Origin: Clostridia bacterium | Lineage (GTDB): Bacteria > Bacillota > Clostridia > Christensenellales > Aristaeellaceae | Reading direction: 5' to 3' | Length of the DNA: 64,000 bases | NCBI GenBank assembly: GCA_017543905.1 | Contig: JAFYFC010000025.1 | Span: 1-64,000, forward strand | Shown here: piece by piece, positions 7,540-53,672 of the stretch | How the letters are laid out: each line of letters begins with the position of its first letter | Position numbering within the stretch: position 1 is the first letter of the stretch | Translations under genes and position numbers: made by a program | Notes under the pieces: generated by a model | What the model was told of the DNA's origin: nothing | The model's database searches: none | What the model saw: the letters and a program-made list of their open reading frames with translations, nothing else

Positions 7540-7568
7540 ATTATACAGCGTCAAACAGACCTTGTCAA
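7540..7568 (-). promoter_or_regulatory. Sigma-A promoter of the small LRR gene
   Basis: On the minus strand TTGACA (7568-7563) and TATAAT (7545-7540) are perfect consensus hexamers with a 17-bp spacer. Transcription should start about 25-30 nt before the ATG at 7506. Confidence 0.85.
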
Positions 7569-7681
7569 CGCGCCGAGCCGCCGTACGCGGCGCGGCAGCC
7601 TTGACAGGCGAAGGCGGCAAGACGCTCAGCCGTAATGCGGCGAGGCGCTTAAGCTGCCGCCGCGCGCGATTTGTTTTCGGA

Positions 7682-7710
7682 TTGCCATGCAGGGCAGTTT
7701 GGTGTATAAT
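7682..7710 (+). promoter_or_regulatory. Sigma-A promoter of the AMMECR1/MEMO gene
   Basis: TTGCCA at 7682-7687 and TATAAT at 7705-7710 with a 17-bp spacer. It lies about 75 nt before the ATG at 7786 and is divergent from the LRR promoter. Confidence 0.75.
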
Positions 7711-7785
7711 TGAGCGCGGGCGGCGCGGCTGGGACGCGGGGTTTGCCGTCCGCAGCGGGATTACTTGCCGAAGGGAAGTGTGAAC

Positions 7786-23740: not shown

Positions 23741-23748
23741 ATCCTCCT

Positions 23749-25384: not shown

Positions 25385-25415
25385 AACTTGTTTGTACAGT
25401 CGATACAAACAAGTT
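25385..25415. repeat. Palindrome at the downstream end of the toxin-antitoxin cassette
   Basis: AACTTGTTTGTA (25385-25396) and TACAAACAAGTT (25404-25415) are perfect inverted arms with a 7-nt centre. It touches the antitoxin stop codon and on the minus strand is followed by ATAGTTTTTGT, so it can act as a terminator. The left arm and centre start are the same as in the operator at 26779-26809. Confidence 0.75.
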
Positions 25416-25894
25416 TAATAATCGCCTCGGGCGTATATCGCTGCTTTCAATCTGAGGTTATTGTCAAAGACATTTTCGCTTCGGCCGTTCATTTCCAGTA
25501 AGCTTTGTACGCACCATTCAGGGTCCTGAGTGTGAAACGAGTAATAAACGTTATTTAACTGCTTATAAGGAAACAGCTTCATCGCAAACTTAGTCGTAAC
25601 TCCCCTCGTATATGAAAGATATCTGTACATATAGCCCATCCAAAACATTGCGCTTTTTGAGTATTTTATTCTGCCGTAATCAGATTTCCCAAATTGATTC
25701 TGAATGCTTTCTATTCCTTCGTTTACATCCAGTGTCAGAAGTGTTGCGTCGTTTTTGTCCAGCTTCCTGACAAGCTCCGAATGCAGAAACCTTCTGAGAA
25801 AAACTGCGGAAGAACAGCTTAATTCTGTCGATCTTTCAAACAGCTTTCCCTGATATTCCGCCAATAAAAGGCCGTCGTGATCAAACTTTTTCAT
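25415..25894 (-). CDS. Antitoxin of the DUF3990 toxin pair
   Basis: A 159-residue soluble protein whose start overlaps the toxin stop by four bases. It is not a DNA-binding protein by sequence; it is rich in Tyr and Phe (FWMGYMYRYLSYTRGVTTKF, FHTQDPEWCVQSLLE) and conserved as a whole with proteins that are regularly encoded after DUF3990 toxins in Clostridia, as far as I recall. The likely role is neutralising the ADP-ribosyltransferase-like toxin. Base composition is AT-rich like the toxin gene and unlike the neighbouring radical SAM genes, suggesting transfer as a pair. Confidence 0.7.
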   Translation of the reverse strand: MKKFDHDGLLLAEYQGKLFERSTELSCSSAVFLRRFLHSELVRKLDKNDATLLTLDVNEGIESIQNQFGKSDYGRIKYSKSAMFWMGYMYRYLSYTRGVTTKFAMKLFPYKQLNNVYYSFHTQDPEWCVQSLLEMNGRSENVFDNNLRLKAAIYARGDY

Positions 25895-26739
25895 TTTAAC
25901 AGCTCCTCGATGTACAGGCCCTCTTTAAACTGCCTTTTTGCCAGCTTGAGCTTTGTATCTATCACATAGCCTCTCTCTATCAGCGTGCTTCTGCAATCCT
26001 CCCGTTCCGGTACGGAAAGATAATACCTCTCTATCGGGATACATTTGCTTAATGCTTTCTCTGTTTTTATAATATACTGAGAGCCTAAGCCGGATGCCGA
26101 CAACGAATGAAGAGCTGCGTCTGCATTGATCTCTCCCTCCGCAAATTGTGACATCACATAAAACATCTTATTGTCCGCTATCGGCGCAATCACGATATCC
26201 GCATCTTTTACTTTATTGACGATCTGCTGAACCATGCTGCTTTGAGCGTATTGTTTTATCGTGCCCCTGAAATAGCAAATCGCAAGCATCCAGTCCAACG
26301 AACAGTCAAATTCTATCTTTTTCAGTCCATCAAACGAATACCTGAACGAATACACCGAAGATTTATCATATTCACACACAAACGATAACGCCTGGCGATA
26401 GGTCTGACCTAAATAAAAACCGTTTCCAAAATCACAATTGTTTCTCGAGCCTGAAACCGTCACTTCCGACAGACCGTATTTTGAACCATGGAACAACACG
26501 TTTCCATACTTTTCTTTTATCAGCTCTTCTTTAACCGAATTCAGCCGATAATCCTGTTCGTATATATATGAATACAGCTTTTCACAGACTTCATTAGTGG
26601 CAGTGCCCTTTTTTTCTATCGAATCGAGCGTCGTTCTCGATAACCCGGTCGCCTCTGACAGCTCAAGCTTGTTTATTCCTTCAGCTTCGAGAATAAAACC
26701 TATGTCGTCTCTGATTTTGTATTCACAATCAACGGTCAT
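25891..26739 (-). CDS. XRE-DUF3990 toxin (ADP-ribosyltransferase-like)
   Basis: The 282-residue protein has an N-terminal helix-turn-helix (residues about 10-65, GINKLELSEATGLSRTTLDS) and then a DUF3990 domain with VLFHGSKYGLSEVTV, CDFGNGFYLGQTYRQALSF and YSFRYSFD. DUF3990 resembles ADP-ribosyltransferase toxins; H85-G and the FGNGFY turn correspond to NAD-binding elements of that fold. The fused HTH probably lets the toxin gene product take part in autoregulation at the palindrome upstream. The partner antitoxin follows with an ATGA overlap. Target unknown. Confidence 0.75.
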   Translation of the reverse strand: MTVDCEYKIRDDIGFILEAEGINKLELSEATGLSRTTLDSIEKKGTATNEVCEKLYSYIYEQDYRLNSVKEELIKEKYGNVLFHGSKYGLSEVTVSGSRNNCDFGNGFYLGQTYRQALSFVCEYDKSSVYSFRYSFDGLKKIEFDCSLDWMLAICYFRGTIKQYAQSSMVQQIVNKVKDADIVIAPIADNKMFYVMSQFAEGEINADAALHSLSASGLGSQYIIKTEKALSKCIPIERYYLSVPEREDCRSTLIERGYVIDTKLKLAKRQFKEGLYIEELLK

Positions 26740-31180: not shown

Positions 31181-32250
31181 AATACGACCTCCCGTCCGCT
31201 GCGGGCGGATTCGTATATCGCTTCAAGTATCTTTATCATGTTAAGCCCCTGCTCGGGCACGAACATAGGCGCGGCGCCGTCCAGCAGCACGCTTACGAAG
31301 TGCTCGAGGTTCGCGCCGTGTATCGAATAGGCCTTATTGTCTATGTTCGGCATGAAATCCGCGGTCTTGCCGTATTCCTCGGTGAATATCGACAGGCGCT
31401 CCGCGCGGTCGGACCAGCTCGCGCCCGCCTGAGTGCCGCGAAGCTCGAAAAAGCGCGTTTCTTTTTCTATGTTCGACGCCCAGGAGAATTCTATCTGCAT
31501 GCACGCGCCGTTTTCAAAGCGTATGAAGCCCATCGCGAGGTCCTCCACGTCGAACGTGCCGCCCGCCTTCTTCTCGCCGAAATCGGAGTTCACGCTGTCG
31601 CTTATGTCGGAGGAGGCGAACTTGTTGTACGTGCAGCCCGACACGCTCACGGGCTTCGGATTGCCCATCAGCCACATAGTCAGGTCTATCATGTGCACGC
31701 CCAGATCGATCAGCGGCCCGCCGCCCGACTGCGCCTTCGTGGTGAACCAGCCGCCCTTGCCGGGTATGCCGCGCCGGCGTATCCAGCCGCAGCGCGCGGC
31801 GTATATCTCGCCCAGCTTGCCGTCCTCTATGTATCTTTTCAGAAACGCGCTCACGGGCATGTAGCGGTTGTTGCGCATGACCATAAGAACCTTGCCGCTT
31901 AATTCGGCGGCGGCCTTCATGCGCTCGGCCTCGCTCACGCTCACGGCGTCCGGCTTTTCGCAAAATACGTTCAGTCCCCTGTTTAACGCCTTCACCGCGA
32001 TTATGCTGTGCAGGTAGTTGGGCGTGCACACGTCCACCGCGTCCAGGCCCGGTATATCGAACACGTCCTCGTAGTTTTCGTATACCGAGGGTATGCCGTA
32101 TTTGAGCGCGGCCGCCTCGGCCTTTTCGCGCACGACGTCGCATACGGCGACGAGCTTTACCCTGTCCCCCATGCGGGCGTAAGCGGGGAAGTGCACCGCG
32201 TTTGCTATGCCTCCCGCGCCGATCACCGCGATATTAAGCGTCTTCTTCAT
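31177..32250 (-). CDS. Gfo/Idh/MocA-family oxidoreductase
   Basis: ATG at 32250 is used because the longer frame lies in the preceding gene. The 357-residue protein has the N-terminal NAD(P) loop IAVIGAGGIANAVHFPAY, the EKP motif in GLNVFCEKPDAVS, and a C-terminal domain with GGGPLIDLGVHMIDLTMWLMG, where Asp and His are the catalytic pair of the family. Such enzymes oxidise or epimerise sugars and cyclitols. It overlaps the AraC-type gene upstream and the glycosidase downstream, so it most likely acts on the sugar released by that glycosidase. Confidence 0.9.
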   Translation of the reverse strand: MKKTLNIAVIGAGGIANAVHFPAYARMGDRVKLVAVCDVVREKAEAAALKYGIPSVYENYEDVFDIPGLDAVDVCTPNYLHSIIAVKALNRGLNVFCEKPDAVSVSEAERMKAAAELSGKVLMVMRNNRYMPVSAFLKRYIEDGKLGEIYAARCGWIRRRGIPGKGGWFTTKAQSGGGPLIDLGVHMIDLTMWLMGNPKPVSVSGCTYNKFASSDISDSVNSDFGEKKAGGTFDVEDLAMGFIRFENGACMQIEFSWASNIEKETRFFELRGTQAGASWSDRAERLSIFTEEYGKTADFMPNIDNKAYSIHGANLEHFVSVLLDGAAPMFVPEQGLNMIKILEAIYESARSGREVVL

Positions 32251-34420
32251 GCTGCGTCTCCTCCCCGGGCGTTGTCTGCCCCTCCTTCGCGCTCTGCCTG
32301 TAGGCAAGCGGCGTCATACCTGTGTAAAGCCTGAACCTGCGGGTAAAGGAGGACGCGTCCGCATAGCCGGACAGCCCGCATACGTCGCCTACCGCGAGAT
32401 CCGTCTGCGCGAGCAGCTTTTTGGCCTCCTCCATCCTGAGCATCGTCAGATAATCGTTGGGCGTCATGCCCATATTGGTTTTGAGCTCTGCCGCCAGCCG
32501 TCCCGGCGTCACGCCGGAAAGCTCCGCCGCGCGGCTTATGCTGAAATCGCTGGCCGTGTAGTTTTCGGTCATCACGCGCATGATTTTTTGTATCAGGGGC
32601 GAACGCTCCGCGCTTGAGCGCGCGTTTATCACGCTTTCGCACACGCTGCGCAGTATCCCGTCCAGCTCGTCCAGACTCCTGCAGCCGGACAGCGAGAACA
32701 GGTTATATATCTCCGCCCCGCTGTAGCCGGAATCGCCCGCCTCGGCGAGTATCGCGTTTATTATGTCGTTGTACACCTGCCGGAACGTGAACAGGTTCAT
32801 TTCGCCGCCCTTCAAAAACGCGGTCAGCTCGCCTATCGCTTCGTCCACGCGCGTACGGTCGCCCTCCGCGAGCGCCTCCTTTATGCCGCGCGCGTATTCC
32901 GCGGCGGCGGGCACCGTCCTGCCGCCCGCAAAGGCGATCTCACTGAAGCTTAAAAGGTGCGCGTCGCCCATCACGAAGCGGCTTTCGTAGGCGCTGGTGG
33001 CCTCCAAAAACGCAGCCGGCAGCTTTTTGAAATCGTCGTGCACGCCGCTCATCGCCGCGGCGATATGCTGCGCGCGCACGCGGGGCAGCGCGCTCACCGC
33101 GCGCGCGTACTCGTCCAGCAGCTTTACCTCGTCCGAAAACGCCACCACCAGCATCTGCTCGTTTTCAAGCAGCTCCGTGCCCGCGCACACCACGCCCTCG
33201 GGCGCGGGAGACAGCACGCTGTCGAGATACACGTCCCGTCCGCGCTCGCGCGGCGCGCCTATCAGCAGCACGCAGAAGTACTGCTTCGCTATGTCCAGAC
33301 CGATCTCCGCGCCCGCCTCGCGCGCGCTTTCGGCGTCTTCGTACCTGCCCAGCGCGAGCTCGCGCGCGAACATATGCCGCCGCGCGGCGAGGGAGCGGGT
33401 TTCAAGCTCCATATTGCGGCTTTCGAGCTCGCTTATTCCGCGCGAGATCGCCTGTATGTCGTCAGTGCGCGCGCCCGACACGGTGCCGAAGTGCGAGCTC
33501 ATGCGCTGTATCGGCGCAAGATTACGCCGCGATATGATTATCATGAATATCACGCAGGGCAGCGCTATCGAAAGCAGCACCGCCGTGAAGCCCAGCCACA
33601 CGCTCGCGGCCTTCGTGTATATGCCCGTAAGCGTCAGTACCGACGTGTACACGCTCTCGCCCTGCGCGCCCGCAAGGACGATAAACACGTGCTCGCGTCC
33701 GTTCATGCGCCGCGTCTCGGTGTATATCTCCTCCTCGCTGTTTACATGACGGCTCACGCGCAGGATTATCTCGTCGCTCACGGAAAAGCTGTCGCCGCGC
33801 GTGATTATGCGCCCGCCGCTTATCACGTAGCGGCTGCACGCGGTGCTCACGTCGCGCGTGTCGGGCACGTCGAACGCGCCAAGCGGCAGCAGGCACACCA
33901 CGCTGCCGCCGGTAAAGGGATATACCGCGGGCACGTATTCGTTTTCCTCGCCGTACACGCTTATCCTCTGCGCGGGCGAAAGCGTGAATTCGCGCGTTTC
34001 GAGCAGCGCTTTTAAATCCGCGTCGTTAAGCTCCGAAAAGCTTACCTCGCGCGCAAATTCGGAAAAGCCCGTTCCGCCCTGCGCGCTTATAACGCGCCCG
34101 CTGTCAAGATAAACGTATGTATGCGCGCCCTCGCAGGGCAGGTAAAAGCTTTGAAGCGCCTGCGCGCGCGCGTTTTCGCCGGGCTGCGCGTCCATGCGGG
34201 AGGCGAAATTTCCCAGCGCGGAAAAATATCCGTCCGTCATGTATTTTATCTGCCACGCCAGTGAGGTCTCCCCGGAGATCACGGACGAATACACGCTTTT
34301 GCGGTAATAGCTGTACATGTACAGCGTGATACCGCCCACCAAAAGCGCCGTAAGCAGTATGTAAGACACGATATAACGCACGAACGTGCTTTTGAAAAAC
34401 GAACGCAGCTTTTTGGGCAT
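32234..34420 (-). CDS. AraC-family regulator with membrane sensor domain
   Basis: ATG at 34420 has CGGAG upstream. The 728-residue protein has a membrane segment at about 16-40, an extracellular region of about 240 residues with a Cache-like pattern, a second membrane segment at about 290-312, then a cytoplasmic region and two helix-turn-helix motifs of the AraC type at the C terminus (FSISRAAELSGVTPGRLAAEL, then DVCGLSGYADASSFTRRFRL). One-component membrane regulators of this kind sense external sugars and activate adjacent catabolic genes. Its 3' end overlaps the oxidoreductase gene by 17 nt, so the three are one unit. No transporter is included. Confidence 0.88.
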   Translation of the reverse strand: MPKKLRSFFKSTFVRYIVSYILLTALLVGGITLYMYSYYRKSVYSSVISGETSLAWQIKYMTDGYFSALGNFASRMDAQPGENARAQALQSFYLPCEGAHTYVYLDSGRVISAQGGTGFSEFAREVSFSELNDADLKALLETREFTLSPAQRISVYGEENEYVPAVYPFTGGSVVCLLPLGAFDVPDTRDVSTACSRYVISGGRIITRGDSFSVSDEIILRVSRHVNSEEEIYTETRRMNGREHVFIVLAGAQGESVYTSVLTLTGIYTKAASVWLGFTAVLLSIALPCVIFMIIISRRNLAPIQRMSSHFGTVSGARTDDIQAISRGISELESRNMELETRSLAARRHMFARELALGRYEDAESAREAGAEIGLDIAKQYFCVLLIGAPRERGRDVYLDSVLSPAPEGVVCAGTELLENEQMLVVAFSDEVKLLDEYARAVSALPRVRAQHIAAAMSGVHDDFKKLPAAFLEATSAYESRFVMGDAHLLSFSEIAFAGGRTVPAAAEYARGIKEALAEGDRTRVDEAIGELTAFLKGGEMNLFTFRQVYNDIINAILAEAGDSGYSGAEIYNLFSLSGCRSLDELDGILRSVCESVINARSSAERSPLIQKIMRVMTENYTASDFSISRAAELSGVTPGRLAAELKTNMGMTPNDYLTMLRMEEAKKLLAQTDLAVGDVCGLSGYADASSFTRRFRLYTGMTPLAYRQSAKEGQTTPGEETQHEEDA

Positions 34421-34447
34421 AATCGCACTCCGCAGCTTGATAAACCG

Positions 34448-34476
34448 ATTATAACACGAATTTCCCGAACGCACAA
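34448..34476 (-). promoter_or_regulatory. Promoter of the AraC-Gfo-glycosidase unit
   Basis: Minus-strand TTGTGC and TATAAT with a 17-bp spacer, 28 nt before the start codon at 34420. The rest of the gap to 34640 holds a TATAAT at 34611-34616 for the rightward SH3b gene, without a clear -35. Confidence 0.7.
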
Positions 34477-35353: not shown

Positions 35354-35373
35354 GGGGCTGCTTGCGCAGCCCC
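35354..35373 (+). terminator. Hairpin after the SH3b gene
   Basis: GGGGCTGC and GCAGCCCC form a perfect 8-bp stem with a TTGC loop, followed by TTCGATT. A second hairpin, GATTGAAATGAAGC with its inverted copy at 35394-35407, follows at once and opens the repeat element. Confidence 0.6.
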
Positions 35374-35581: not shown

Positions 35582-38500
35582 TCACTGCAGCGCGGCGTTG
35601 CAGGCGCTTATGCAGGCGTTCCAGGCTTCTTCGAAGTTCGCGCCTTTTACCACGTTTTTCACGAAGCTTGACAGATTACTGCGCACCGCGGCCGCGCCTT
35701 TTACGTTTGGCAGCGCGCCCGCTTTGTCCATGTTCGCGTTTACCGCTCTCAGGCTCTGGGCAGCGATCGTTTCTCCGGAAAGATAAGTGCTGTAAGCAGG
35801 CAGCGCGCGCGTGCCCGCGTACGGCGACAGGCCCTGCACGGCCTGCACCCAGCCGAAATTGACCTCGGGAGATATGAAGTATTTAACGAACTCATAGGCG
35901 CCCTGCACGCGCGCGGAGTCGTCGTAGTCGAACACGATAGGCCCGCGGTTCCACGTGGGATACCAGTTGTCGCAGGGCATCGGCGCTATAGCGAATTCGA
36001 AGTCCTCAGGCATTATATACGCATAGCCCGCGGACGAGCCGATATACGCCGCGCACGCGCCTTCCGTAAAATCATTGGAGAAGTAGTCCATCGTCGCTTC
36101 TGTCAGGAACAGGCCCTCGTTTACGCAGTCTATCAGCCACTCAAGCTGTTCCTTCGCAGCATTTGTGTCGAACGCGACGCAGTTGTTCTGCACGTCTATA
36201 TACCCGCTGCCGCTTTCCATTATGAGCGCCTGTATGCAGTCGGTCAGCGAATCCAGGCCCACGCCGGGTATGCCCTTCTGCTGCCTGATTTCGCGGCAGG
36301 CGGCCTCAAGCTCTGTCCAGCTGGTCGGAACGCTCAGCGCCAGCTCGTCGAACAGCGTTTTATTGTAGTACAGCACGGGCCCCGTGGTATACGCGGGCAG
36401 GAAATGGATATGGCCGTCGGAGAAGCCGTTTATCTCGCCCTCCAGTATGCCCTCAGGCAGGCTTTCGTCGAAGCCGGCTATGCCCGCTGAGCCGGAATAG
36501 ATGTACGCGTCGAGATTCGCCGCGCGTCCCGACTCCACGTACTCCGTCGCGGCGGAGGCGTAATTGAGTATGATGTCGGGGCCGGTTCCGTCAAGCACGG
36601 CTTCCTCCAGTTCGCTTGTAAACGAGCCGTTATTCTTCGATACGAGCTCCACCTGATACCCGTCGTGCGCGGAATTGAAGCTGTCCGCGCAGCTCTGCAG
36701 ATAAGCGCTCTGCCCGCTCGAAAGCGTGTGCCAGATGGTGACGGTAACGGCGTCTGAAAGCGCTTCGAAGGGAATGTTGTTGTCGTTTGCATAGGTTTCG
36801 GCGTAGGAGCCCGCCGGAGCGGTGATCGTAACGTTGTCAGTGTTATTAAAGGCATTTCCCTCGATGAAGGTCACGGACGCGGGCAGGATGATTTGGGTCA
36901 GATTAGTGCAGGATTCGAACGCATGTTTGCCTATGCTCAATACTCCGTTTGGGATGGTTATGCTGGTCAGGCTGGAGCAGTTGGAAAACGCGCCCTCTCT
37001 GATTTCCGTCACGCTGTTTGGGATAGTCAAGTCAGTCAAACCGCTGCAGCCTGTGAACGCCCAATCAGTCACGCTCGTTACGCCGTAAGGGATCGTTATT
37101 TCGGTCAGACCGCTACAGAAGCAGACCGCGCCCATACCAAGGCTCGTCACACTGTCAGGGATAGTTATGCTCGTAAGACCCGTGCAGTAATAGAACGCCT
37201 CTGTACCTATGCTCGTCACCCCATCCGGGATAGTTACGCTCGTCAGGCTGCCTGAGGATGCGAATGCACGGTCTCCTATTGCGGTCACCGTGAGTCCATC
37301 CGGGGACAGCTGCGGCAGAACCAGCACCGTATCGCTGCCCGTATAGCCGGTGATCTCGCAGGTATTTTCGTCTATGACTTCGAATGTGTAATCGCTCGTG
37401 TCCGGCACTTCTTCGCTTATGTAGGCATAGTTAATATTGTTTTCTATCGCGTAGGTCTCGGCATAGCTGCCTTCCACGCAGTAGATCACAAGGTTTTCGC
37501 TGTTGCCATATAAAGCCGTATCTGCGTCTATAAACGTTACGCTGGCCGGGATGGTCAGGCTCGTCAGGCTTGAGCAGTTGCAGAACGTATTGTATTCTAT
37601 CAACTGTACGCCGTTGGGAATTACGAAGCTAACCAGACCCGAGCATCCGCGGAACGCCTCGCCCTCTATCGTGGTAACGCTCGCGGGCAGACTGATTTCC
37701 GTCAGGTTGACGCAGTCCGCAAACGCGGCATATGCTATCGTATTTACGCTTACGGGAACCGACACGCTCGTTTTGCCCGCAGGGCAGCAGATCAGGCGCG
37801 TTTTATCATTATTGTACAGCACGCCGTCTTCTGACGCATAATACTCGCTGCCTGCAGAAACCGTTATACTGCTCAGGCTGCTGCAGCCGTTTATTCCGTC
37901 TCTTTCAAAGTATGTAATGCCCGATGACAGATGTATGCTCGTTAGGCTGCTGCAGTCCAAGAACGCGCCGCCGTAGATGGTAATTACGCTTTCCGGTATG
38001 GTTATTTCAGTCAGATTGCGGCATCCCGTGAACGCAAAGTCCCCTATCTCCGTCACACTCTCCGGAATGGAAACGCTTGTTTTGCCCGAAGCGCAGCGGA
38101 TCAGGCTTGTTTTGTTCTTATTATACACCACACCGTCTTCGCTCGAATAGCATGGATTGCCCTCGGCAACGATTATTTCCGTCAGGGAATCATCGTAACC
38201 AAACACATACATTCCTATGTAGGTTATACTTTCCGGTATGGTTACGGAAATGAGATTCGGATTATTAGACAGCGCATTGCTTTCCAGACCTACAACGTTT
38301 CTCGTTACCCCGAATTCGTCCGTCCAGCTGCTGGGCAGTATCAGTTCTGTTTCGCTGCCTGTATAGCCAGAAATAGAGCATTCATCTTCGCTATTAATAT
38401 CAAAGACATAGTCTCCAATAATAAAGCAGCTTATATTGTTCTGAATAGCATAAGTCTCGGCATAGCTGCCTTCATGGCAGCAGATGACGAATCCGTCTTT

Positions 38501-40060
38501 ACAGCCTGTAAAGGCATTCATGCCAATCTGTGTTACGCTGTCAGGGATAGTGATGCTTGCCAAATTTGCACAGTTGTAAAATGCATATTGTGCTATTGCC
38601 GTTACGTTTTCTTTCATGACAACTCTGGTCAAGCCTGAGCAGTGCGCAAATGCATACATCCCGATATAGGTGACGTTGGAGGGCAGATTGATCTCTGTCA
38701 GGCCTGTACACTGAAGAAATGCCGAAAATCCGATGTACGTTACGCTGTCCGGCAGCCATATATAGTTCAGTTTGTCGCAGCCATAAAATGCATTATTCTC
38801 TATCCGGGTCACACTTCCAAGAACATCTGCGTAATCCCGGCCAGGAGGACAGCAAACCAGAACGGTCTTGTTTTTATTGTACACCACACCATCATAAGTC
38901 GAAAAAAACTCATTATCATTAGAGATATTGATTTCGGTCAGGTTTTTACAGTCCATAAACAGGTCGTTGTCCAGCGACGTCACACTGGCAGGGATATCGA
39001 TGCTTCTTAAGTTGTAGCAGAAGCCGAAAGCATTGCTGCCGATTGAGATGACGCCATAGGGGATATCAATATGAGACAGGCCTGTGCAGCCCATAAACGC
39101 AGTACCGCCGATCGTGGTGATACTGTCTGGCAGCATGATAGACGTGAGCGATTCATTGGTGTAGAACGCTCCGGTACCAATCGCCGTCACGCTTTCCGGC
39201 AGGGAAAAATCGCTCTTTCCGGCAGGCCAGGTGTGAAGGGTGGTCACGTCTTTGTCGTACAGAACACCGTCTATAGAAACATAATTGGGGTTGTCGGTGT
39301 CAACCGTTATCTGCGTCAGAGCGCCGCGGGAAGCAAACGCATGGTAGTTGATAAATGTGACGGAAGCAGGTACTGCAATCTCTGTCAGGCTGTCGCAATA
39401 CTGGAATACACCTATACCGATCCGTACTACTCCTTCCGGGATAACTACGTTGGTAAGGCCGCTGCACCAAGCAAACGCATAATCGTCTAAAGAGGTTACG
39501 CTTGCAGGAATGATAACTGAAGTAATCGCTCTGTTATAGCCAAACGCATACTGACCGATAGCAGTGACGGTCCTGGTCACTCCCCCATCGTCCGTCCATT
39601 CGGAGGGAAGCGTTAATCCGGTCTCGCTGCCGGTGTAGCCGGTGATACGGCAGGTGGTATCGTCTATGATATCGAATGTGTAGTCGCTCGTGTCTTCTCC
39701 GCTTTCGTCTATCGCAACAAACGTGATATTGTGCTCTGTCGCATAGGTCTCGGCGCAGGAGCCGGAATAGCCGTAAATCGTAAGCCCCGTCACATACTCG
39801 AACGCGTCGTCCGCGATGTACGTAAGCGACGAAGGCAGGCTTATTTCGCTCAGGGAGCTGTATGCGAACGCCCCGGCGCGTATCTCCTGCGCGCCCTCGG
39901 GCACTGTTACGCTCTCAAGCGAGGCGCTGCCGTAAAACGCCCTCTCGCCTACTACGCTGAGCCCCGCGGGCAATTGCAGCGTGTTTTCCGCCGGCGCGGA
40001 CGCGCAGAGCGCCACAGCCGCGATCAGCGCAAGTACGAATATCGCCTTTATAAGCCTCAT
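35582..40060 (-). CDS. Giant BspA-type LRR protein fused to a sugar-binding-protein domain
   Basis: ATG at 40060 follows GAGGATGGG and begins a signal peptide (MRLIKAIFVLALIAAVALCA). The 1,492-residue protein has about 35 LRR_5 units of 23 residues (IPxSVTxIGxxAFxxCxxLT) in several blocks to about residue 1,090, each block bounded by an insert such as ITGYTGSET. Residues about 1,103-1,492 are a full type 1 extracellular solute-binding domain: VTIWHTLSSGQSAYLQSCAD, GTGPDIILNY, LPAYTTGPVLYYNKTLFDEL and VPTSWTELEAACREI. No ABC permease genes are nearby and no lipobox or anchor is seen. The function of this fusion is unknown. Confidence 0.9.
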   Translation of the reverse strand: MRLIKAIFVLALIAAVALCASAPAENTLQLPAGLSVVGERAFYGSASLESVTVPEGAQEIRAGAFAYSSLSEISLPSSLTYIADDAFEYVTGLTIYGYSGSCAETYATEHNITFVAIDESGEDTSDYTFDIIDDTTCRITGYTGSETGLTLPSEWTDDGGVTRTVTAIGQYAFGYNRAITSVIIPASVTSLDDYAFAWCSGLTNVVIPEGVVRIGIGVFQYCDSLTEIAVPASVTFINYHAFASRGALTQITVDTDNPNYVSIDGVLYDKDVTTLHTWPAGKSDFSLPESVTAIGTGAFYTNESLTSIMLPDSITTIGGTAFMGCTGLSHIDIPYGVISIGSNAFGFCYNLRSIDIPASVTSLDNDLFMDCKNLTEINISNDNEFFSTYDGVVYNKNKTVLVCCPPGRDYADVLGSVTRIENNAFYGCDKLNYIWLPDSVTYIGFSAFLQCTGLTEINLPSNVTYIGMYAFAHCSGLTRVVMKENVTAIAQYAFYNCANLASITIPDSVTQIGMNAFTGCKDGFVICCHEGSYAETYAIQNNISCFIIGDYVFDINSEDECSISGYTGSETELILPSSWTDEFGVTRNVVGLESNALSNNPNLISVTIPESITYIGMYVFGYDDSLTEIIVAEGNPCYSSEDGVVYNKNKTSLIRCASGKTSVSIPESVTEIGDFAFTGCRNLTEITIPESVITIYGGAFLDCSSLTSIHLSSGITYFERDGINGCSSLSSITVSAGSEYYASEDGVLYNNDKTRLICCPAGKTSVSVPVSVNTIAYAAFADCVNLTEISLPASVTTIEGEAFRGCSGLVSFVIPNGVQLIEYNTFCNCSSLTSLTIPASVTFIDADTALYGNSENLVIYCVEGSYAETYAIENNINYAYISEEVPDTSDYTFEVIDENTCEITGYTGSDTVLVLPQLSPDGLTVTAIGDRAFASSGSLTSVTIPDGVTSIGTEAFYYCTGLTSITIPDSVTSLGMGAVCFCSGLTEITIPYGVTSVTDWAFTGCSGLTDLTIPNSVTEIREGAFSNCSSLTSITIPNGVLSIGKHAFESCTNLTQIILPASVTFIEGNAFNNTDNVTITAPAGSYAETYANDNNIPFEALSDAVTVTIWHTLSSGQSAYLQSCADSFNSAHDGYQVELVSKNNGSFTSELEEAVLDGTGPDIILNYASAATEYVESGRAANLDAYIYSGSAGIAGFDESLPEGILEGEINGFSDGHIHFLPAYTTGPVLYYNKTLFDELALSVPTSWTELEAACREIRQQKGIPGVGLDSLTDCIQALIMESGSGYIDVQNNCVAFDTNAAKEQLEWLIDCVNEGLFLTEATMDYFSNDFTEGACAAYIGSSAGYAYIMPEDFEFAIAPMPCDNWYPTWNRGPIVFDYDDSARVQGAYEFVKYFISPEVNFGWVQAVQGLSPYAGTRALPAYSTYLSGETIAAQSLRAVNANMDKAGALPNVKGAAAVRSNLSSFVKNVVKGANFEEAWNACISACNAALQ

Positions 40061-40142
40061 GTTCCCATCCTCCTGTATTCCGGCGCGAACGCGCCCTCCC
40101 CGCCGTTTGCAAGCGCCCGGCAGTAAGTTTTGCTTTCTATTA

Positions 40143-40171
40143 ATTTTACCATAATATAAGCCAACCGTCAA
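40143..40171 (-). promoter_or_regulatory. Promoter of the LRR-SBP fusion gene
   Basis: Minus-strand TTGACG and TAAAAT with a 17-bp spacer, about 80 nt before the start codon. Confidence 0.7.
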
Positions 40172-40419: not shown

Positions 40420-42153
40420 CTACCCTTCCCTCCTGAGCCTATACACCTTTTCCTCTTCTGCGAAGGTGCGTCTTATTTCTATGGTGTCGTCGTTCAGGGC
40501 GCGGATCAGGGTTTCGCCTTGTTTCAGCGCTTTGGAGGCGTTTCTTTCGCATATTAAGCGTTTTATCTCGCTGTGCAGCTCGCTGTCCCCGCGTCCCCAG
40601 GGGTACGTGCCGCGGCAGAACGGGTCGCCCATGCCGGTCAGGCCCGCGTCGTCGCCGTAATACAGCATAGGCATGCCGGGCAGGCTGCACACCAGCGCGA
40701 AGGCCTGTATGAAGCGCGCCTTTCCGCGCTCGTAATCAGACCTCGAAAGGGGTATAAAGCGTCTGTGCTCGCGCGGGGGCTCGAGATTCTGCTGTCCGGC
40801 GAGCACGTTTATAATGCGGGGCTTGTCGTGACTGCCCAGCAGGTTCATCATCGAATACAGCATCGGACGCGGCAGCGTGCTGTGCTGATAGTTCAGAAAT
40901 TCCTCGAACACGCGGGCGTTTTCGCGCCCGAGCAGGAAGTTTATCACGTTTTCGCGCAGCGGGTAGTTCATCGCGGAATCCAGCGTGTCGCCTGTAGCGT
41001 AGCACCTTTGTCTGCCGTAGGCGATTTTGTTGGTGACGTCCTCCCACACCTCGCCTATCACGCACGCATCGGGGTTTTCTTGCTTTACACGCGCGCGCAC
41101 GGCGCGGATGAACTCCATCGGCAGCTCGTCCGCCACGTCCAGCCGCCAGCCGGACACGCCGCACCTAAGATAATGCGAAATCACGCTGTCTCGTCCCGTC
41201 ACCGCGAACTCCATAAACGAGGGCTCGGTCTGGTTGAGCTTGGGCAGCGTGTGTATGCCCCACCAGCTGTCGTAATCATCCCGCCCGTCCAAAAAGCGGT
41301 ACCACGGCGAATACGGGGACTCGCCGTATTTGTTGTACGCGCCCTTCGTGCGGTAGGTGCCGTATTTGTTGAAATAGCGGCTGTCCGCGCCGGTATGGGA
41401 AAATACGCCGTCCAGCACCACGTGCATGCTTTCCGCCGCCGCGTCCGCGCAGAGCCCCTTAAGGTCCTCCTCCGTGCCGAAGGAGGGGTCTATCTGCATA
41501 TAGTCCGCGGTGTCGTATTTGTGGTTCGAGCGCGCGCGGAATATGGGCGTAAGGTACACGGCGCGCACGCCCATGTCCTTAAGGAAGGGCAGCTTTTCGC
41601 GTATACCGTTTAACGTGCCGCCGAAAAAATCCACGGCCTCCTCGTCGTCGCCGTTTCGGCACAGATCCGGCGGTTCGTACCAGCTTTCGTGCAGATACGC
41701 GCCCCGCCCGTGGGGAGGCACTTTGCCGCGCGAGCCGATATAAAAGCGATCCGGCATTATCTGCATCATCACGCTTTCGCGCATCCATTCGGGGCTTGTA
41801 AACGCCGCCGAGTACACGGTTATCTGAAAGGAGGGCGGCTCGTGATCGTACAGCGCGCACGCGCCGCCTATCGGCTTGCCCAGATAAAAGCGCTCCCCGC
41901 CGCAAAGGTCTATAACGAAATAGTACCACAAAAGCCCCGCGTTCGTGCCCACGCTCACGTGCGCCTCGTACATGCCGCCGCTCACGGGCCGCATGGGCAG
42001 CCATTCCTCGTCCACGCCCCGCCACAGGCGCACGTACACGTTCTGCGGCGCGTCGGGACAATTCACGCGCAAACAAACAACGCTCCCCGCAGCGCACGCG
42101 CCCTGCGGGAAGCGGTCGATAAACGAATACGGATCGTGGCGGGCGCGTATCAC
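40420..42153 (-). CDS. GH13 alpha-amylase-family enzyme, neopullulanase/cyclomaltodextrinase-like
   Basis: The start is a GTG at 42153 overlapping the glgP stop (GTGA). The 577-residue protein has an N-terminal beta domain of about 120 residues (CBM34-like) and then the GH13 barrel. Conserved regions are VVLDGVFSHTG (I), GWRLDVADELP (II, nucleophile Asp), CVIGEVWED (III, Glu) and LLGSHDKPRI (IV). Regions I and IV carry Ser where the family usually has Asn (DGVFNH, NHD). There is no signal peptide. Coupled to glycogen phosphorylase, it should cut branched or cyclic maltodextrins in the cytoplasm. Confidence 0.88.
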   Translation of the reverse strand: MIRARHDPYSFIDRFPQGACAAGSVVCLRVNCPDAPQNVYVRLWRGVDEEWLPMRPVSGGMYEAHVSVGTNAGLLWYYFVIDLCGGERFYLGKPIGGACALYDHEPPSFQITVYSAAFTSPEWMRESVMMQIMPDRFYIGSRGKVPPHGRGAYLHESWYEPPDLCRNGDDEEAVDFFGGTLNGIREKLPFLKDMGVRAVYLTPIFRARSNHKYDTADYMQIDPSFGTEEDLKGLCADAAAESMHVVLDGVFSHTGADSRYFNKYGTYRTKGAYNKYGESPYSPWYRFLDGRDDYDSWWGIHTLPKLNQTEPSFMEFAVTGRDSVISHYLRCGVSGWRLDVADELPMEFIRAVRARVKQENPDACVIGEVWEDVTNKIAYGRQRCYATGDTLDSAMNYPLRENVINFLLGRENARVFEEFLNYQHSTLPRPMLYSMMNLLGSHDKPRIINVLAGQQNLEPPREHRRFIPLSRSDYERGKARFIQAFALVCSLPGMPMLYYGDDAGLTGMGDPFCRGTYPWGRGDSELHSEIKRLICERNASKALKQGETLIRALNDDTIEIRRTFAEEEKVYRLRREG

Positions 42154-44606
42154 AGACGCACCTCGTCCAGATGCCAGATCTTCTCGTTGTATTCCTTGAT
42201 GACGCGGTCGGAGGCGAATATCCAGCTTCGCGCCACGTTCACTATCGCCTTTCTGACCCAGCTGTCGCGGTCGGCGTAATCCCTTACGAGATTTTCGCGC
42301 GCGCGCACGTAACCGGGCAGATCGCTCAGCACGAAGTACTGATCCGCGAAGCTGCTGCCCTCGCCGAAGAGCAGCGAATGGTAAATGTCGCGGAACAGCC
42401 CCGGCTGCTCGGGACACAGCGTGCCGTCTATCAGCTGCGTGAGCACGCGGCGTATCTCGGGATTGGTCTCGAATATCGCGCTCGCGCGGCTGGGCTGCAT
42501 GCTCGCGGCCTCCACCTGCTCGGCGGTCATACCGAAAATGTGTATGTTCTCGCTGCCCACCGCGTCGAGTATCTCCACGTTCGCGCCGTCCAGCGTGCCC
42601 AGCGTTATCGCGCCGTTCATCATGAACTTCATGTTGCCGGTGCCGCTGGCCTCCTTGCCCGCGGTGGAAAGCTGCTCAGACACGTCCGCCGCCGGGATCA
42701 GGTCCTCCGCCACGGACACGCAGTAGTTTTCCACGAACACCACCTTCATGTATCTGGACGCGACGGGATCGTTGTTGACCAGGCGGCCTATCTCGTTTAT
42801 CAGGCGGATTATGAGCTTCGCCCTGTAATAGCCGGGCGCGGCCTTCGCGCCGAATACGTACGTGCGCGGCTGCACGTTCGCGCTGGCGTCGGGATTGTCC
42901 TTTATGCGGTTGTACAGTATGAGTATGGACAGCGCGTTCAGAAGCTGGCGCTTGTACTCGTGCAGCCGCTTCGCCTGCACGTCGAACATGTCGTCCGTGC
43001 GCAAAGCGGTGTTCTGCGAGGCGGTCAGGCGCTTTGAAAGCCTTTCTTTATTGGCCTTTTTGACCTCGAAAAACTTCTGCCTGAAAGCTGCGTCGTCCTT
43101 GAAGCGCTCAAGCTCCGCGAGCTTTTCGTAATCCTTGCGCCACGCGTCGCCTATCGCCTCGTCTATCAGCGTGGACAGGCGGTAATTCGCCATCATCAGC
43201 CAGCGGCGGTGGGTTATGCCGTTCGTGATCGCGATGAACTTCGAGGGCTCGGTCAGGTAGAAATCGTGGAAAACGCTTTTTTTGAGTATGTCGGTGTGTA
43301 TCTTGCTCACGCCGTTCACGCTGTGGCCCATGTACACGCACAGATTTGCCATGTTCACGTAGCCGTAGCCGATCACCGCCATGCGTCCGATGCGCTCCCA
43401 CTGGCCGGGGAAATACTCCCACAGCGCCGCGCACTCGCGCCGGTTGATCTCCTGCAGTATCATGTAAATGCGGGGCAGCAGCCGGCTGACCATGTCCTCC
43501 GGCCACTTTTCGAGCGCCTCCGCCATAACGGTGTGGTTGGTATAGGCGAACGTGCGGCGGGTTATATCCTCCGCCTTTTCCCAGGAAAGCCCCTCCTCGT
43601 CCATGAGTATGCGCATGAGCTCGGGTATCGCCATGCCGGGATGGGTATCGTTTACGTGCAGGGCGACCTTATCCGGGAATATATCGAAATTCCGGCCGTA
43701 TACCTTAATAAAGTCCTCCACCGCGTACTGTACGGACGCGCTGGACAGGAAGTACTGCTGCTTAAGGCGCAGCTCCTTGCCCTCGATGTGGTTGTCGTCG
43801 GGATAAAGCACCTTGCTGATAACCTCGGCAAGCTCCTTTTCCTCTATCGCGCGGGTGTATTCGCCGCGGTTGAAGGAGGGCATGTCGAGGGTCTTCGTGG
43901 CCTTCGCCGACCAGCATCTGAGCATGTTCACCATATTGGAATCGTAGCCCAGCGTAGGCACGTCGTAGGGCACCGCCTGCACGGTGGTATAATCCTTAAG
44001 GCGGTATTTCACGACTCCGTTCTGCTCGTATCTTTCGACGTAGCCGCCGAAGCGCACCTCCTGGGTCTGATCCGGACGGCAAACCTCCCACATCGAGCCG
44101 TTTTCAAGCCAGTTGTCGGGCAGCTCCACCTGATAGCCGTCCACTATCTTCTGGCGGAACAGGCCGTATTCGTAGCGAATGGTGCAGCCCATCGCGGGCA
44201 GGCGCAGCGAGGACAGACTGTCCAGAAAGCATGCCGCCAGACGCCCCAGACCGCCGTTTCCCAGCCCAGGCTCCGGCTCCTCCTCGAATATCTTGGAGGG
44301 GTCCAGCCCCAGCTCGTGCAGCGCGACCGCGTAGGCCTCCTCGTTTACCAGCGCCACCATGTTGTTGTGCAGCGCGCGGCCTACCAGAAATTCCGCGCTC
44401 AGATAATACAGCTTTTTGCAATGCTGCTTTTTGCGCTCTCCGCGCGAGGCGGTGCGGCGCTTCATTACCTCGTCCCTTACCGTCTGCGCAAGCGCGTCGT
44501 AAATCTGCGCTTTGGTCGCGTCGCTTATTTCACAGCCGTAATTTCTTTCGAGCTTGCCCTTTATGGAAGCCTTGATCTCGTCAACCGTCAGTCTTTTAAC
44601 AATCAT
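42150..44606 (-). CDS. glgP: Glycogen/starch/alpha-glucan phosphorylase
   Basis: The 818-residue enzyme has the full family length. It removes glucose as glucose 1-phosphate from the non-reducing end of alpha-1,4-glucans. The pyridoxal phosphate lysine is in the signature EASGTGNMKFMMNGAITLGT (about residue 660), and LYYLSAEFLVGRAL and GNGGLGRLAACFLDSL are the N-terminal signatures. The next gene, a GH13 enzyme, overlaps its stop. It is transcribed leftward from its own promoter at 44640-44668. Confidence 0.96.
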   Translation of the reverse strand: MIVKRLTVDEIKASIKGKLERNYGCEISDATKAQIYDALAQTVRDEVMKRRTASRGERKKQHCKKLYYLSAEFLVGRALHNNMVALVNEEAYAVALHELGLDPSKIFEEEPEPGLGNGGLGRLAACFLDSLSSLRLPAMGCTIRYEYGLFRQKIVDGYQVELPDNWLENGSMWEVCRPDQTQEVRFGGYVERYEQNGVVKYRLKDYTTVQAVPYDVPTLGYDSNMVNMLRCWSAKATKTLDMPSFNRGEYTRAIEEKELAEVISKVLYPDDNHIEGKELRLKQQYFLSSASVQYAVEDFIKVYGRNFDIFPDKVALHVNDTHPGMAIPELMRILMDEEGLSWEKAEDITRRTFAYTNHTVMAEALEKWPEDMVSRLLPRIYMILQEINRRECAALWEYFPGQWERIGRMAVIGYGYVNMANLCVYMGHSVNGVSKIHTDILKKSVFHDFYLTEPSKFIAITNGITHRRWLMMANYRLSTLIDEAIGDAWRKDYEKLAELERFKDDAAFRQKFFEVKKANKERLSKRLTASQNTALRTDDMFDVQAKRLHEYKRQLLNALSILILYNRIKDNPDASANVQPRTYVFGAKAAPGYYRAKLIIRLINEIGRLVNNDPVASRYMKVVFVENYCVSVAEDLIPAADVSEQLSTAGKEASGTGNMKFMMNGAITLGTLDGANVEILDAVGSENIHIFGMTAEQVEAASMQPSRASAIFETNPEIRRVLTQLIDGTLCPEQPGLFRDIYHSLLFGEGSSFADQYFVLSDLPGYVRARENLVRDYADRDSWVRKAIVNVARSWIFASDRVIKEYNEKIWHLDEVRL

Positions 44607-46560: not shown

Positions 46561-46819
46561 ATTATCCTCTGAAACGGCAGGGTTTTGGTGATAGAGGCGA
46601 TTGATAATAATAATTAGCTTGGTACAAGCCGCATTTGCGGCAATGCCAAACTAACTTTTATTTAGCGGTTATTAAGTCTTCAGTTTTCAGTATTCATTCT
46701 GAGGGAAAGCCTTGCAGACCTTGCATACCTCCCATCTCCATTTAATTTAACACGTTATTAACAGAGCGGCGCCCTTATCGGTGTATAATTACATCATATA
46801 CATCGAAGGGGTGCTTCTT

Positions 46820-49800
46820 ATGAAAAAGCTGATACTCGCTTCTGTATTGGCGGTCGCGCTGATCGCTTTGCTCTCGTTCGCGTGCGCCGAACACAGCGGC
46901 ACGTGGGGGTCGCTCAGCTGGACGCTGAACGCTGCGGGCGTGCTTACGATAAGCGGCTCAGGCGATATAGCCGATCTCGAATTCTACGGTGAAGACGCCT
47001 GGCTTGCGTACACAGACGACATCACGCAAGTAATCGTTTCAGAAGGCATAACAAGCATCGGCGACAACGCGTTTCAGAACGCCTTTAATCTCACTGGCAT
47101 ATCGCTTCCTTCCGGGCTGACGAGGATAGGCGACGCCGCGTTTTATAGTTGTGAAAGTCTGGGGAGCATCTCGATCCCCGGCACTGTTGCAAGCATCGGC
47201 AAAGATGCCTTCCGTTGGTGCTCAGCTCTTACTGGAATAACCATTCCGAACGGTGTTACGGAAATCGCAGCCGACACTTTTTACCACTGCGAGAGCCTGA
47301 CAAACATAATCATTCCGGGCAGCGTTACGAATATCAGGAGTAATGCTTTTGCCTACTGTTCCGCGTTGGAGAACATTGCCATTCCGAACAGCGTGACCAG
47401 TATAGGCGAATATGTCTTCGAAGGCTGCTCAAGCTTGAAAAACATTAGTATTCCTAACAGTGTGACAAGTATCGGCTACGGCGCGTTTTATAATTGTTCT
47501 TCCTTAACCTATCTGCCCCTGCCGGACAGTATTACTGATATTAGACGTAACATGTTCTATGGCTGCGACGGCCTGACCGAAATAACGATCCCGTCCGGCA
47601 TAAAAAGTATTGGATACGATGCTTTCTATCTCTGCGAAAACCTTACAAAAGTCTCGATACCGGCAAGCGTCTCTACCATTGATGTCAGAGCCTTTCAAAA
47701 CTGCACAAGCCTTACGGAAATCGTCGTGGACACAGGCAACAGCGTATATGCTTCATATTTAGGCGCAGTGTATAACACAGCGCTTACCGAGCTCCTGCTC
47801 TGTCCGGACGGAAAGACGAGCATTACCTTCCCGAACAGCTTAACCGGGATAGGAAACTACGCTTTCAGTTATTACAGCCGCCTTGCAAGTATAACCATTC
47901 CCTCAGGGTTAACGAGTATCAACTGCGACGAGGTTTTTGATAACTGCCACGAGCTTACGAATATTACCGTGGACAGCGCCAATCCCGCTTTTGCCTCTTA
48001 CCTCGGCATGCTTTACGACAAAACGCTCACGCAGCTGATCAAATGCCCAAACGGCAAAACCTACGCTATCGTCGCGGACAGCGCGGTGAGCGCCGCTCCC
48101 GGTGCTTTCAACGGCTGCTATAAGCTGACCACGCTGAACATAGCCAACCTTACGGATATAGACAGTAATACTTTTTCCTATTGCTACGCGCTGAATACAC
48201 TCAAGGTAAATCCGGCCAATCCGCAGTACGCCTCGCGCGGCGGCCTGCTCTGCGATAAGGCGGGCAGCGCAGTGATCCTGTGTCCCAAAGGACTTACGAG
48301 CGTCACTGTCCCGGATGGCATAACCGAGATACAAAATAGTGCATTTGCATACGGCAGTATAGTCAGCGTTACGCTTCCGGACAGCCTTACGCGCATCTGG
48401 GATAATGCTTTTTACGAATGTGAAGAGCTTACAGGTATACGTATACCCGAAAGCGTGACCGAGATCGGCGACGACGCGTTCGCAGGCTGCTGGAAACTTA
48501 AAACGCTCACTCTGCCCGCACATATGGAGCACATAGGCGCCGAAGCGTTTGCAAACTGCGGCATCGACAGACTGGTGCTTCCGGAAGGGATCACCGAGAT
48601 AGCTCTTGGCGCATGTACGGCGAGTTACGTGTATATCCCCGCGAGTCTGGAGGAAATCGATGTATACAGCTTTCACAGCAGTATTGACGAAATAGAGGTT
48701 TCCTCCGCCAGCCGGTATTTCGCGGTATATTCGGGCATGCTGTTCAACAAAGACCTGACCGAGCTTATTTACGTCCCAAGTTCAGCCGTATTCTCGCTGC
48801 CCGCAAGCTATACGGTTATCGGGGACTCGGCGTTTTCTGGAACATATTTTGAAAACGTGGTCATTCCCGGCCACGTTACGGCGATCGGAGACGATGCCTT
48901 CCACGACTGTTATTCTTTACGCAGCGTATCCATACCCGGCAGCGTCGCAAGCATCGGCGCATATGCATTTTACTCGTGTGGGAATCTTTCAAACGTCACT
49001 CTCGGAAACGGCGTCACGACGATAGGCGATTATGCGTTCTGGAACACAAGTATAAGCAGCATAGTATTGCCGGACAGCGTCGTGAGCATAGGCGATCATG
49101 CGTTCGACGATTGCTACAGCCTGGTAAAGATACTCATTCCCGCAAGCGTCACGTCGATAGGAGAAGAATGCGTACCGGCAGGAACGACGATACGCTGTTA
49201 CGAAAACTCTTACGCGGCAGAGTGGGCAAGCGAAAACGGCTGCACGACCGAGTACATAGTAGAGTGCGCGCACGGGCACACCGAAGAAATAACGACGCAG
49301 GAAGCAACCTGCGGCAGCGACGGCTTAAAGCTTATCGTATGCTCGGACTGCGGCGCGGTGCTCGACGAAGAGGTCATCCCGGCGACCGGCGAGCATGTCT
49401 TTTATACCGAGTCGGGCGATCCGACCTGTACGGAAGGAGGGTATGTGGTCGATAACTGTGAAAACTGCGGTTATTACATAATCAGAGCCGAATATCCCCC
49501 GCTCGGGCATACCGCGGTCACGGACCGCGCGGTCGCGCCCACGTGGAACGAGCCGGGCCTGACCGAGGGCAGCCACTGCTCCGTGTGCGAGGAGATCATC
49601 GTAAGGCAGACGGCGCTCGTGCCCCTTAAGTACAGCGACGCGCTGCTCACCCTTCCGGCGAATCTGAGCGTAATAAACGCCGGCGCGTTTACGGGTATTT
49701 CGCAAATCGACGCGATAGTGCTCCCCGCGGGCGTGACCTCTATCGCCGCAAACGCGTTTGAGCCCGGCACGCTGCTCGTGGTGCCCGCAGGCAGCCCGTG

Positions 49801-49849
49801 GGCGCAGTGGGCGTGCGACAACGGATACACCGCGATCGAAATGAATTGA
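46820..49849 (+). CDS. Secreted BspA-type LRR protein with Cys-rich modules
   Basis: ATG at 46820 follows GAAGGGG; the TATAAT at 46784-46789 rules out the upstream ATG. The signal peptide is MKKLILASVLAVALIALLSF with a cut near ACA. After a short GTWGSLSWTLNAAGVLTISG domain (bacterial Ig-like opening of LRR_5 proteins), about 30 LRR_5 units of 22-23 residues extend to about 800. Residues 813-935 contain three modules with paired cysteines (VCSDCGAVLDEEVIPATGEH, NCENCGYYI, HCSVCEEII), as in other clostridial surface proteins. A partial LRR closes the chain at 1,009. No anchor is seen, so it is secreted or weakly surface-bound. Confidence 0.88.
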   Translation: MKKLILASVLAVALIALLSFACAEHSGTWGSLSWTLNAAGVLTISGSGDIADLEFYGEDAWLAYTDDITQVIVSEGITSIGDNAFQNAFNLTGISLPSGLTRIGDAAFYSCESLGSISIPGTVASIGKDAFRWCSALTGITIPNGVTEIAADTFYHCESLTNIIIPGSVTNIRSNAFAYCSALENIAIPNSVTSIGEYVFEGCSSLKNISIPNSVTSIGYGAFYNCSSLTYLPLPDSITDIRRNMFYGCDGLTEITIPSGIKSIGYDAFYLCENLTKVSIPASVSTIDVRAFQNCTSLTEIVVDTGNSVYASYLGAVYNTALTELLLCPDGKTSITFPNSLTGIGNYAFSYYSRLASITIPSGLTSINCDEVFDNCHELTNITVDSANPAFASYLGMLYDKTLTQLIKCPNGKTYAIVADSAVSAAPGAFNGCYKLTTLNIANLTDIDSNTFSYCYALNTLKVNPANPQYASRGGLLCDKAGSAVILCPKGLTSVTVPDGITEIQNSAFAYGSIVSVTLPDSLTRIWDNAFYECEELTGIRIPESVTEIGDDAFAGCWKLKTLTLPAHMEHIGAEAFANCGIDRLVLPEGITEIALGACTASYVYIPASLEEIDVYSFHSSIDEIEVSSASRYFAVYSGMLFNKDLTELIYVPSSAVFSLPASYTVIGDSAFSGTYFENVVIPGHVTAIGDDAFHDCYSLRSVSIPGSVASIGAYAFYSCGNLSNVTLGNGVTTIGDYAFWNTSISSIVLPDSVVSIGDHAFDDCYSLVKILIPASVTSIGEECVPAGTTIRCYENSYAAEWASENGCTTEYIVECAHGHTEEITTQEATCGSDGLKLIVCSDCGAVLDEEVIPATGEHVFYTESGDPTCTEGGYVVDNCENCGYYIIRAEYPPLGHTAVTDRAVAPTWNEPGLTEGSHCSVCEEIIVRQTALVPLKYSDALLTLPANLSVINAGAFTGISQIDAIVLPAGVTSIAANAFEPGTLLVVPAGSPWAQWACDNGYTAIEMN

Positions 49850-53622: not shown

Positions 53623-53672
53623 AAGCATTTCCCTCCATATGAAATCAGCGCACGCGTCGTGCGTGCGCGGAA

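What the first reader, a model, noticed from the sequence alone, without database searches (positions are those of the whole stretch)
35582..40060. Leucine-rich-repeat protein fused to a complete sugar-binding protein
A secreted chain of about 35 BspA-type repeats ends in a full type 1 solute-binding domain of 390 residues. Solute-binding proteins normally are lipoproteins working with an ABC permease; here there is no lipobox and no permease nearby. The fusion could be a capture device that holds a ligand on surfaces or polymers. I know of no described protein with this arrangement.
Basis: partly seen in the sequence, partly recalled or inferred. Interest (0 to 1): 0.75.

Follow-up and report, generated by a model that had tools for sequence, protein, structure and literature searches.

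The report
LRR scaffold carrying a sugar-binding domain
A gut bacterium has fused a copied and fast-changing version of the sugar-catching part of one of its own sugar transporters onto the end of a long secreted leucine-rich-repeat protein, which probably turned a transport component into an extracellular sugar-binding surface protein; the fusion is real but known from one genome only.

Summary
The fusion is real. One uninterrupted 1,492-codon gene (35582-40060, minus strand) with its own promoter-like site, RBS and terminator-like hairpin encodes a signal peptide, a BspA-type LRR array of four capped blocks, and a complete type-1 solute-binding protein (SBP). The join lies exactly at the LRR cap and the mature SBP start, with no near-identical DNA elsewhere that could cause a misjoin. 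The SBP is a paralogue of a standalone SBP in the same genome (60% identity), which sits in a conserved SBP-ATPase-permease-permease operon. The fused copy groups with the genus's standalone SBPs but has an about eightfold longer branch; it keeps the fold and 61 of 63 invariant positions. The window holds no importer permease. The missing lipobox is not special: nearly all relatives of this SBP in the lineage lack one. No other LRR fusion was found in 308 family genomes, but a coiled-coil stalk and membrane-anchored spacers occur on SBPs there. Best reading: a transport SBP exapted as an extracellular, probably alpha-gluco-oligosaccharide-binding module on an LRR scaffold. Ligand, anchoring and loss of transport are inferred, not shown. 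New variant of a known kind; moderate interest.

The parts
35582..40060 (-). LRR-SBP fusion gene, 1,492 aa, single ORF
   Evidence: Pfam
40143..40171 (-). promoter-like site TTGACG-17-TAAAAT with TG before the -10 (10 of 12 matches)
   Evidence: consensus match only
40069..40074 (-). Shine-Dalgarno AGGAGG, 8 nt before the ATG
   Evidence: sequence
39989..40060 (-). signal peptide MRLIKAIFVLALIAAVALCASAPA (residues 1-24), no lipobox; cleavage site inferred by eye
   Evidence: translation; resembles signal peptides of other LRR proteins of the genome
36758..39988 (-). BspA-type LRR array, residues 25-1101, four blocks each closed by a GS[YC]AETYA end cap
36769..36829 (-). last LRR end cap (GSYAETYANDNNIP...), natural C-terminus of LRR proteins in this genome
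36749..36757 (-). three-residue linker (SDA, residues 1102-1104) between LRR cap strand and first SBP strand
   Evidence: AlphaFold2 model
35585..36748 (-). complete mature type-1 solute-binding domain (residues 1105-1492), mean pLDDT 94.9 on its own
35354..35373 (-). intrinsic-terminator-like hairpin GGGGCTGCGCAAGCAGCCCC + GTTTTTT downstream of the gene
   Evidence: consensus match only
40420..42417 (-). upstream neighbour: GH13 enzyme of neopullulanase/cyclomaltodextrinase/maltodextrin glucosidase type (not clearly co-transcribed; 359-nt gap, fusion gene has its own promoter-like site)
42150..44606 (-). upstream neighbour: glycogen/maltodextrin phosphorylase, paired with the GH13 gene across the genus

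Best explanation
A standard ABC-importer SBP (the one in the conserved SBP-MalK-MalF-MalG operon of this lineage) was duplicated. The copy lost its own signal peptide and was joined at its mature N-terminus to the capped C-terminus of a secreted multi-block BspA-type LRR protein, downstream of the phosphorylase-GH13 gene pair. The fused SBP is no longer tied to a transporter and works as an extracellular carbohydrate clamp at the tip of an LRR scaffold. The LRR array provides reach and contacts to a surface or polymer, and the SBP domain binds an oligosaccharide, most likely an alpha-gluco-oligosaccharide. Shown: fusion, paralogy, orphaning, accelerated but constrained divergence; predicted with high confidence: an intact fold. 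Inferred: ligand, attachment through the LRR, and loss of transport function.
For: Intact ORF and domain-exact junction. Sister SBP in the same genome at 60% identity in a full transporter operon, syntenic in the genus genomes G001, G004 and G005 where I read the flanks. 46 of 51 related loci with enough flank have the MalK-like ATPase directly downstream, while the window has no importer permease. Tree: fused copy inside the genus clade (98/96), end branch 0.73 against 0.09 for the standalone copy. It breaks 16 of 116 close-group invariant positions (others 0-6 of about 100), yet keeps 61 of 63 strictly invariant ones. dN/dS on its branch is about 0.2-0.3 with dS near saturation, so selection still seems to act. 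Changes include F13L/T14S, aligned to MBP G13/D14, a site known to me from suppressor genetics as touching MalFG. Closest folds are a cyclic maltosyl-maltose binding protein and GacH. Neighbours are an alpha-glucan phosphorylase and a cyclomaltodextrinase-like GH13.
Against: Only one genome has it, so conservation of the fusion cannot be tested. No cell-wall anchor motif was found, so how it stays near the cell is unknown. F13L/T14S are conservative changes, and that loop also lines the ligand site in MBP. Fold similarity does not fix the ligand: other close PDB matches bind dinucleotides, glycerol phosphate and xylo-oligosaccharides. The GH13-phosphorylase pair exists in the genus without the fusion, so adjacency may be accidental.
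Confidence: 0.5

Rival explanations
1. Stalked transport receptor: the LRR array is only a long spacer, and the SBP still hands its ligand to the sister transporter on contig C15 or to another importer.
For: SBPs of this family in related genera carry membrane-anchored spacers, and one second copy has a coiled-coil stalk of about 560 residues. The fold and most invariant positions are kept.
Against: No N-terminal membrane anchor (signal peptide looks cleavable), own promoter-like site away from the transporter, eightfold longer branch, changed residues at the MBP G13/D14-equivalent loop. The second stalked copy (L059) shows no such acceleration.
Confidence: 0.25
2. Passenger domain: an SBP copy was captured by an LRR gene and is drifting without a function of its own.
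For: Long branch; 16 of 116 close-group invariant positions broken, more than in any relative; present in a single genome.
Against: No stop in 1,492 codons, dN/dS about 0.2-0.3, 61 of 63 strictly invariant residues kept, confident fold.
Confidence: 0.15
3. Sensor or decoy: the SBP domain binds a sugar and signals to or competes with other proteins rather than capturing substrate.
For: An AraC-type regulator with an apparently membrane-embedded N-terminal region lies 1.1 kb beyond the stop codon (32234-34474); SBPs act as receptors in other systems (own knowledge).
Against: The regulator is separated by an SH3 gene on the other strand and terminator-like sites and sits next to an oxidoreductase-like and a glycosidase-like gene; nothing links it to the fusion.
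Confidence: 0.08
4. Assembly artefact joining two genes.
For: The genome is a draft in 55 contigs; LRR DNA is repetitive.
Against: In-frame join exactly at both domain borders, no second signal peptide, no near-identical junction DNA elsewhere (best 72% over 298 bp), no other SBP copy in the genome that the fused half could be taken from (60% to the nearest).
Confidence: 0.02

Closest known systems
Type-1 carbohydrate solute-binding proteins of the SBP_bac_8/SBP_bac_1 kind (7BVT cyclic maltosyl-maltose binding protein, GacH, UgpB)
   Same: Full-length fold (TM 0.85 to 7BVT), Pfam above cut-off, conserved invariant residues
   Different: C-terminal part of a 1,492-residue LRR protein, no linked permease or ATPase
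BspA-type LRR proteins (PF13306; structures 4GT6, 4FS7, 4H09)
   Same: 23-residue repeats, capped blocks, signal peptide; many paralogues in the same genome end in the same kind of GSYAETYA cap
   Different: The last cap is followed by a complete SBP instead of the protein's end
Standalone SBP of the C15 ABC importer in the same genome (L021 6512-7765)
   Same: 60% identity over the whole domain, also without lipobox
   Different: Has its own signal peptide, lies in an SBP-ATPase-permease-permease operon, evolves slowly
Coiled-coil-stalked second SBP copy in a related genus (L059 2-2665)
   Same: Same SBP family, extra copy beside a canonical one, long N-terminal extracellular extension
   Different: Coiled coil with a signal-anchor instead of LRRs; not accelerated; C-terminus cut by the contig end
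957-residue SBP with N-terminal modules next to two permeases (L022 5122-7995)
   Same: SBP as C-terminal domain of a much larger extracellular protein in the same genome
   Different: Different SBP subfamily, lipobox-like cysteine present, transporter genes adjacent

Membership tests
BspA-type LRR protein (PF13306) | LRR_5 profile match over the curated cut-off | tested here: met
   612 bits against 27.7, nine stretches
BspA-type LRR protein (PF13306) | 23-residue repeat period | tested here: met
   26 strict matches, spacing 23 within blocks
BspA-type LRR protein (PF13306) | surface exposure and binding to host or polymer | not testable with these tools
   only a signal peptide is visible; no LPXTG motif
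HupY/LrrG adhesin (NF047961) | score over the equivalog cut-off | tested here: not met
   232.5 bits against 1250
Carbohydrate ABC-importer SBP (SBP_bac_8) | profile match and complete two-lobe fold | tested here: met
   89 bits against 27; pLDDT 94.9, TM 0.85 to 7BVT
Carbohydrate ABC-importer SBP (SBP_bac_8) | linked permease and ATPase genes | tested here: not met
   no importer permease in the window; 46 of 51 relatives have the ATPase downstream
Carbohydrate ABC-importer SBP (SBP_bac_8) | lipoprotein anchor in Gram-positive-type bacteria | tested here: not met
   no lipobox, but nearly all related standalone SBPs of the lineage also lack it
Carbohydrate ABC-importer SBP (SBP_bac_8) | ligand binding | not testable with these tools
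   inferred from fold and conserved residues only
Carbohydrate ABC-importer SBP (SBP_bac_8) | docking on the permease | tested here: inconclusive
   positions aligned to MBP G13/D14 are changed (F13L invariant elsewhere, T14S), conservative changes

The most novel reading that the evidence does not exclude
Transport SBPs in this bacterial lineage are repeatedly duplicated and mounted on long extracellular scaffolds (LRR array here, coiled coil in another genus), creating a transporter-independent class of secreted glycan clamps for adhesion to, or retention of, soluble oligosaccharides.
Probability: 0.25. Interest if true: 0.55.

Novelty: new variant of a known kind. Interest (0 to 1): 0.37.

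Why it matters
Solute-binding proteins are almost always studied as transporter parts. A copy released from its transporter and mounted on an LRR scaffold would be a clear case of exaptation into an adhesin or capture protein, with the unreleased sister copy in the same genome as a natural control. It would also caution against counting every SBP_bac domain as an importer when predicting diets of gut and rumen bacteria. The weight is limited because the fusion is known from one draft genome.

Tried and rejected
A genome-contig scan with the single fused SBP found nothing; the alignment-based scan worked. No second LRR-SBP fusion turned up in the genus, the 308-genome family, or samples of 396 order and 391 class genomes; frames of about 1,010-1,020 aa in three distant class members had weak SBP matches and were not read. 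The class and order searches score only a few candidates per genome, so rare fusions of other SBP subfamilies could be missed. Long 'open frames' (G110, G136) were upstream open sequence rather than extra domains. An operon with the GH13-phosphorylase pair was considered and rejected: 359-nt gap, own promoter-like site, and the pair stands without the fusion in relatives. Misassembly was considered and rejected. The 'no lipobox' argument was dropped as uninformative. Paper searches gave no described case.

Full report
Observation. The reported ORF exists exactly as described: 40060 to 35582, minus strand, 1,492 codons, no internal stop. It has a Shine-Dalgarno AGGAGG 8 nt before the ATG, a good promoter-like site (TTGACG-17-TAAAAT, with TG before the -10) at 40171-40143, and a terminator-like hairpin with a T-run at 35373-35354, so it looks monocistronic. 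Pfam places LRR_5 (612 bits) over the first 1,100 residues and SBP_bac_8/SBP_bac_1 (89 and 71 bits) at 1119-1413.

Anatomy. The LRR array consists of four blocks, each ending in the cap GS[YC]AETYA... (residues 100, 531, 864, 1084). The same kind of cap is the natural C-terminus of many other LRR proteins of this genome. After the last cap the model shows a short strand, a three-residue linker and then the first SBP strand (mean pLDDT 92 for residues 890-1492, pTM 0.68). The SBP starts where the mature standalone SBPs start after their signal peptide, so the fusion joins two complete units at their natural borders. The SBP domain alone is modelled at pLDDT 94.9; its best structural match is the cyclic maltosyl-maltose binding protein 7BVT (TM 0.85), then GacH.

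Origin. The genome has a second SBP of this subfamily on contig C15 (60% identity), in an operon SBP - MalK-like ATPase - MalF-like - MalG-like. In the genus genomes G001, G004 and G005 this operon sits in the same place beside the same rRNA-methyltransferase-like gene. Of 51 related loci with enough flank, 46 have the ATPase gene just downstream. Named relatives are rumen and gut Clostridia and Christensenella-like MAGs, with more distant ones in Treponema, Erysipelotrichia and rumen Chloroflexi. In the tree the fused domain groups with the genus's standalone SBPs plus one sister genus (98/96) but has an end branch of 0.73 changes per site against 0.09 for the standalone copy. It is therefore a duplicate that diverged about eight times faster. 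Its position inside the clade is not resolved (43/29), so the duplication may predate the genus.

Constraint. Leave-one-out counts show that the fused copy keeps 61 of 63 strictly invariant positions but breaks 16 of 116 positions invariant in its closer group, where other members break 0-6. NG86 estimates for its branch give dN about 0.25 and dS 0.8-1.3, so dN/dS about 0.2-0.3, with dS near saturation. This suggests changed constraint rather than no constraint. E70 (A in the fused copy) falls on MBP R66, a sugar contact (own knowledge). These hints allow altered docking, altered ligand, or both.

Context. The window holds no importer permease; the nearest on the contig is about 40 kb beyond the gene, at 80.4 kb. 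The upstream neighbours are an alpha-glucan phosphorylase and a GH13 of cyclomaltodextrinase/neopullulanase type, a pair kept in the genus without the fusion. Together with the fold matches this makes an alpha-gluco-oligosaccharide ligand the best guess, no more.

Is it an artefact? The junction DNA has no near-identical copy in the genome (best 72% over 298 bp, all within LRR sequence or short SBP stretches), the frame is kept, and no signal peptide remains at the SBP start. GC at third positions rises gradually from LRR-like to SBP-like values (0.67 to about 0.75) across the junction, as expected from other LRR and non-LRR genes here. Misassembly is very unlikely.

How special is it? In all 308 family genomes held only this one SBP of the subfamily is LRR-fused. 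Absence of a lipobox is shared by nearly all relatives in the lineage, whereas Erysipelotrichia and Treponema relatives have one. Some relatives instead have an uncleaved-looking N-terminal anchor plus spacers, and genus g30 has a second copy on a coiled-coil stalk of about 560 residues. The same genome also carries a 957-residue SBP with N-terminal modules beside permeases. Extension of SBPs at the N-terminus is thus recurrent here; the LRR version is the extreme one and, of those examined, the only one that is both orphaned and fast-evolving.

Function. Best reading: an extracellular sugar clamp at the end of an LRR scaffold, derived from a transport SBP (confidence 0.5). Rivals: stalked transport receptor (0.25), passenger (0.15), sensor or decoy (0.08), artefact (0.02). 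No paper describing such a fusion was found, within an open-access library only.

Noticed in passing
L059:2-2665 (G117:C109; also L095): Second copy of the same SBP family fused to an N-terminal signal-anchor and coiled coil of about 560 residues, beside a canonical copy (L065) in the same genome; cut by the contig end.
   Followed up: partly
L022:5122-7995, L148:4148-7012, L153:4041-7736: A class of SBPs of about 950-1,040 residues with N-terminal modules of unassigned fold, next to two ABC permeases and an NHL-repeat protein; at least four in this genome.
   Followed up: partly
L066-L131: Nearly the whole SBP subfamily in these Clostridia lacks a lipobox although it belongs to ABC importers; relatives in Treponema and Erysipelotrichia have one. 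How these SBPs are retained is unclear.
   Followed up: partly
L021:3720-5309: MalF-like permease with an extra N-terminal transmembrane segment and an extracytoplasmic domain of about 150 residues (by eye) in the conserved operon; could hold the non-lipidated SBP.
   Followed up: no
L163:3058-5718 (G000:C41): Another LRR protein with a C-terminal region of about 430 residues without a Pfam match.
   Followed up: no
window 25415-26739: HTH protein with a mono-ADP-ribosyltransferase-like motif (FHGSKYGL...GNGFYLG, by eye) next to a small overlapping gene; could be a toxin-antitoxin-like pair.
   Followed up: no
window 46781-49849, 51943-53628, 6679-7818: Three further BspA-type LRR proteins in the window, without extra domains by Pfam.
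   Followed up: partly
window 22670-24858: Two adjacent genes that read like radical-SAM proteins (by eye, CxxxCxxC motifs); not analysed.
   Followed up: no
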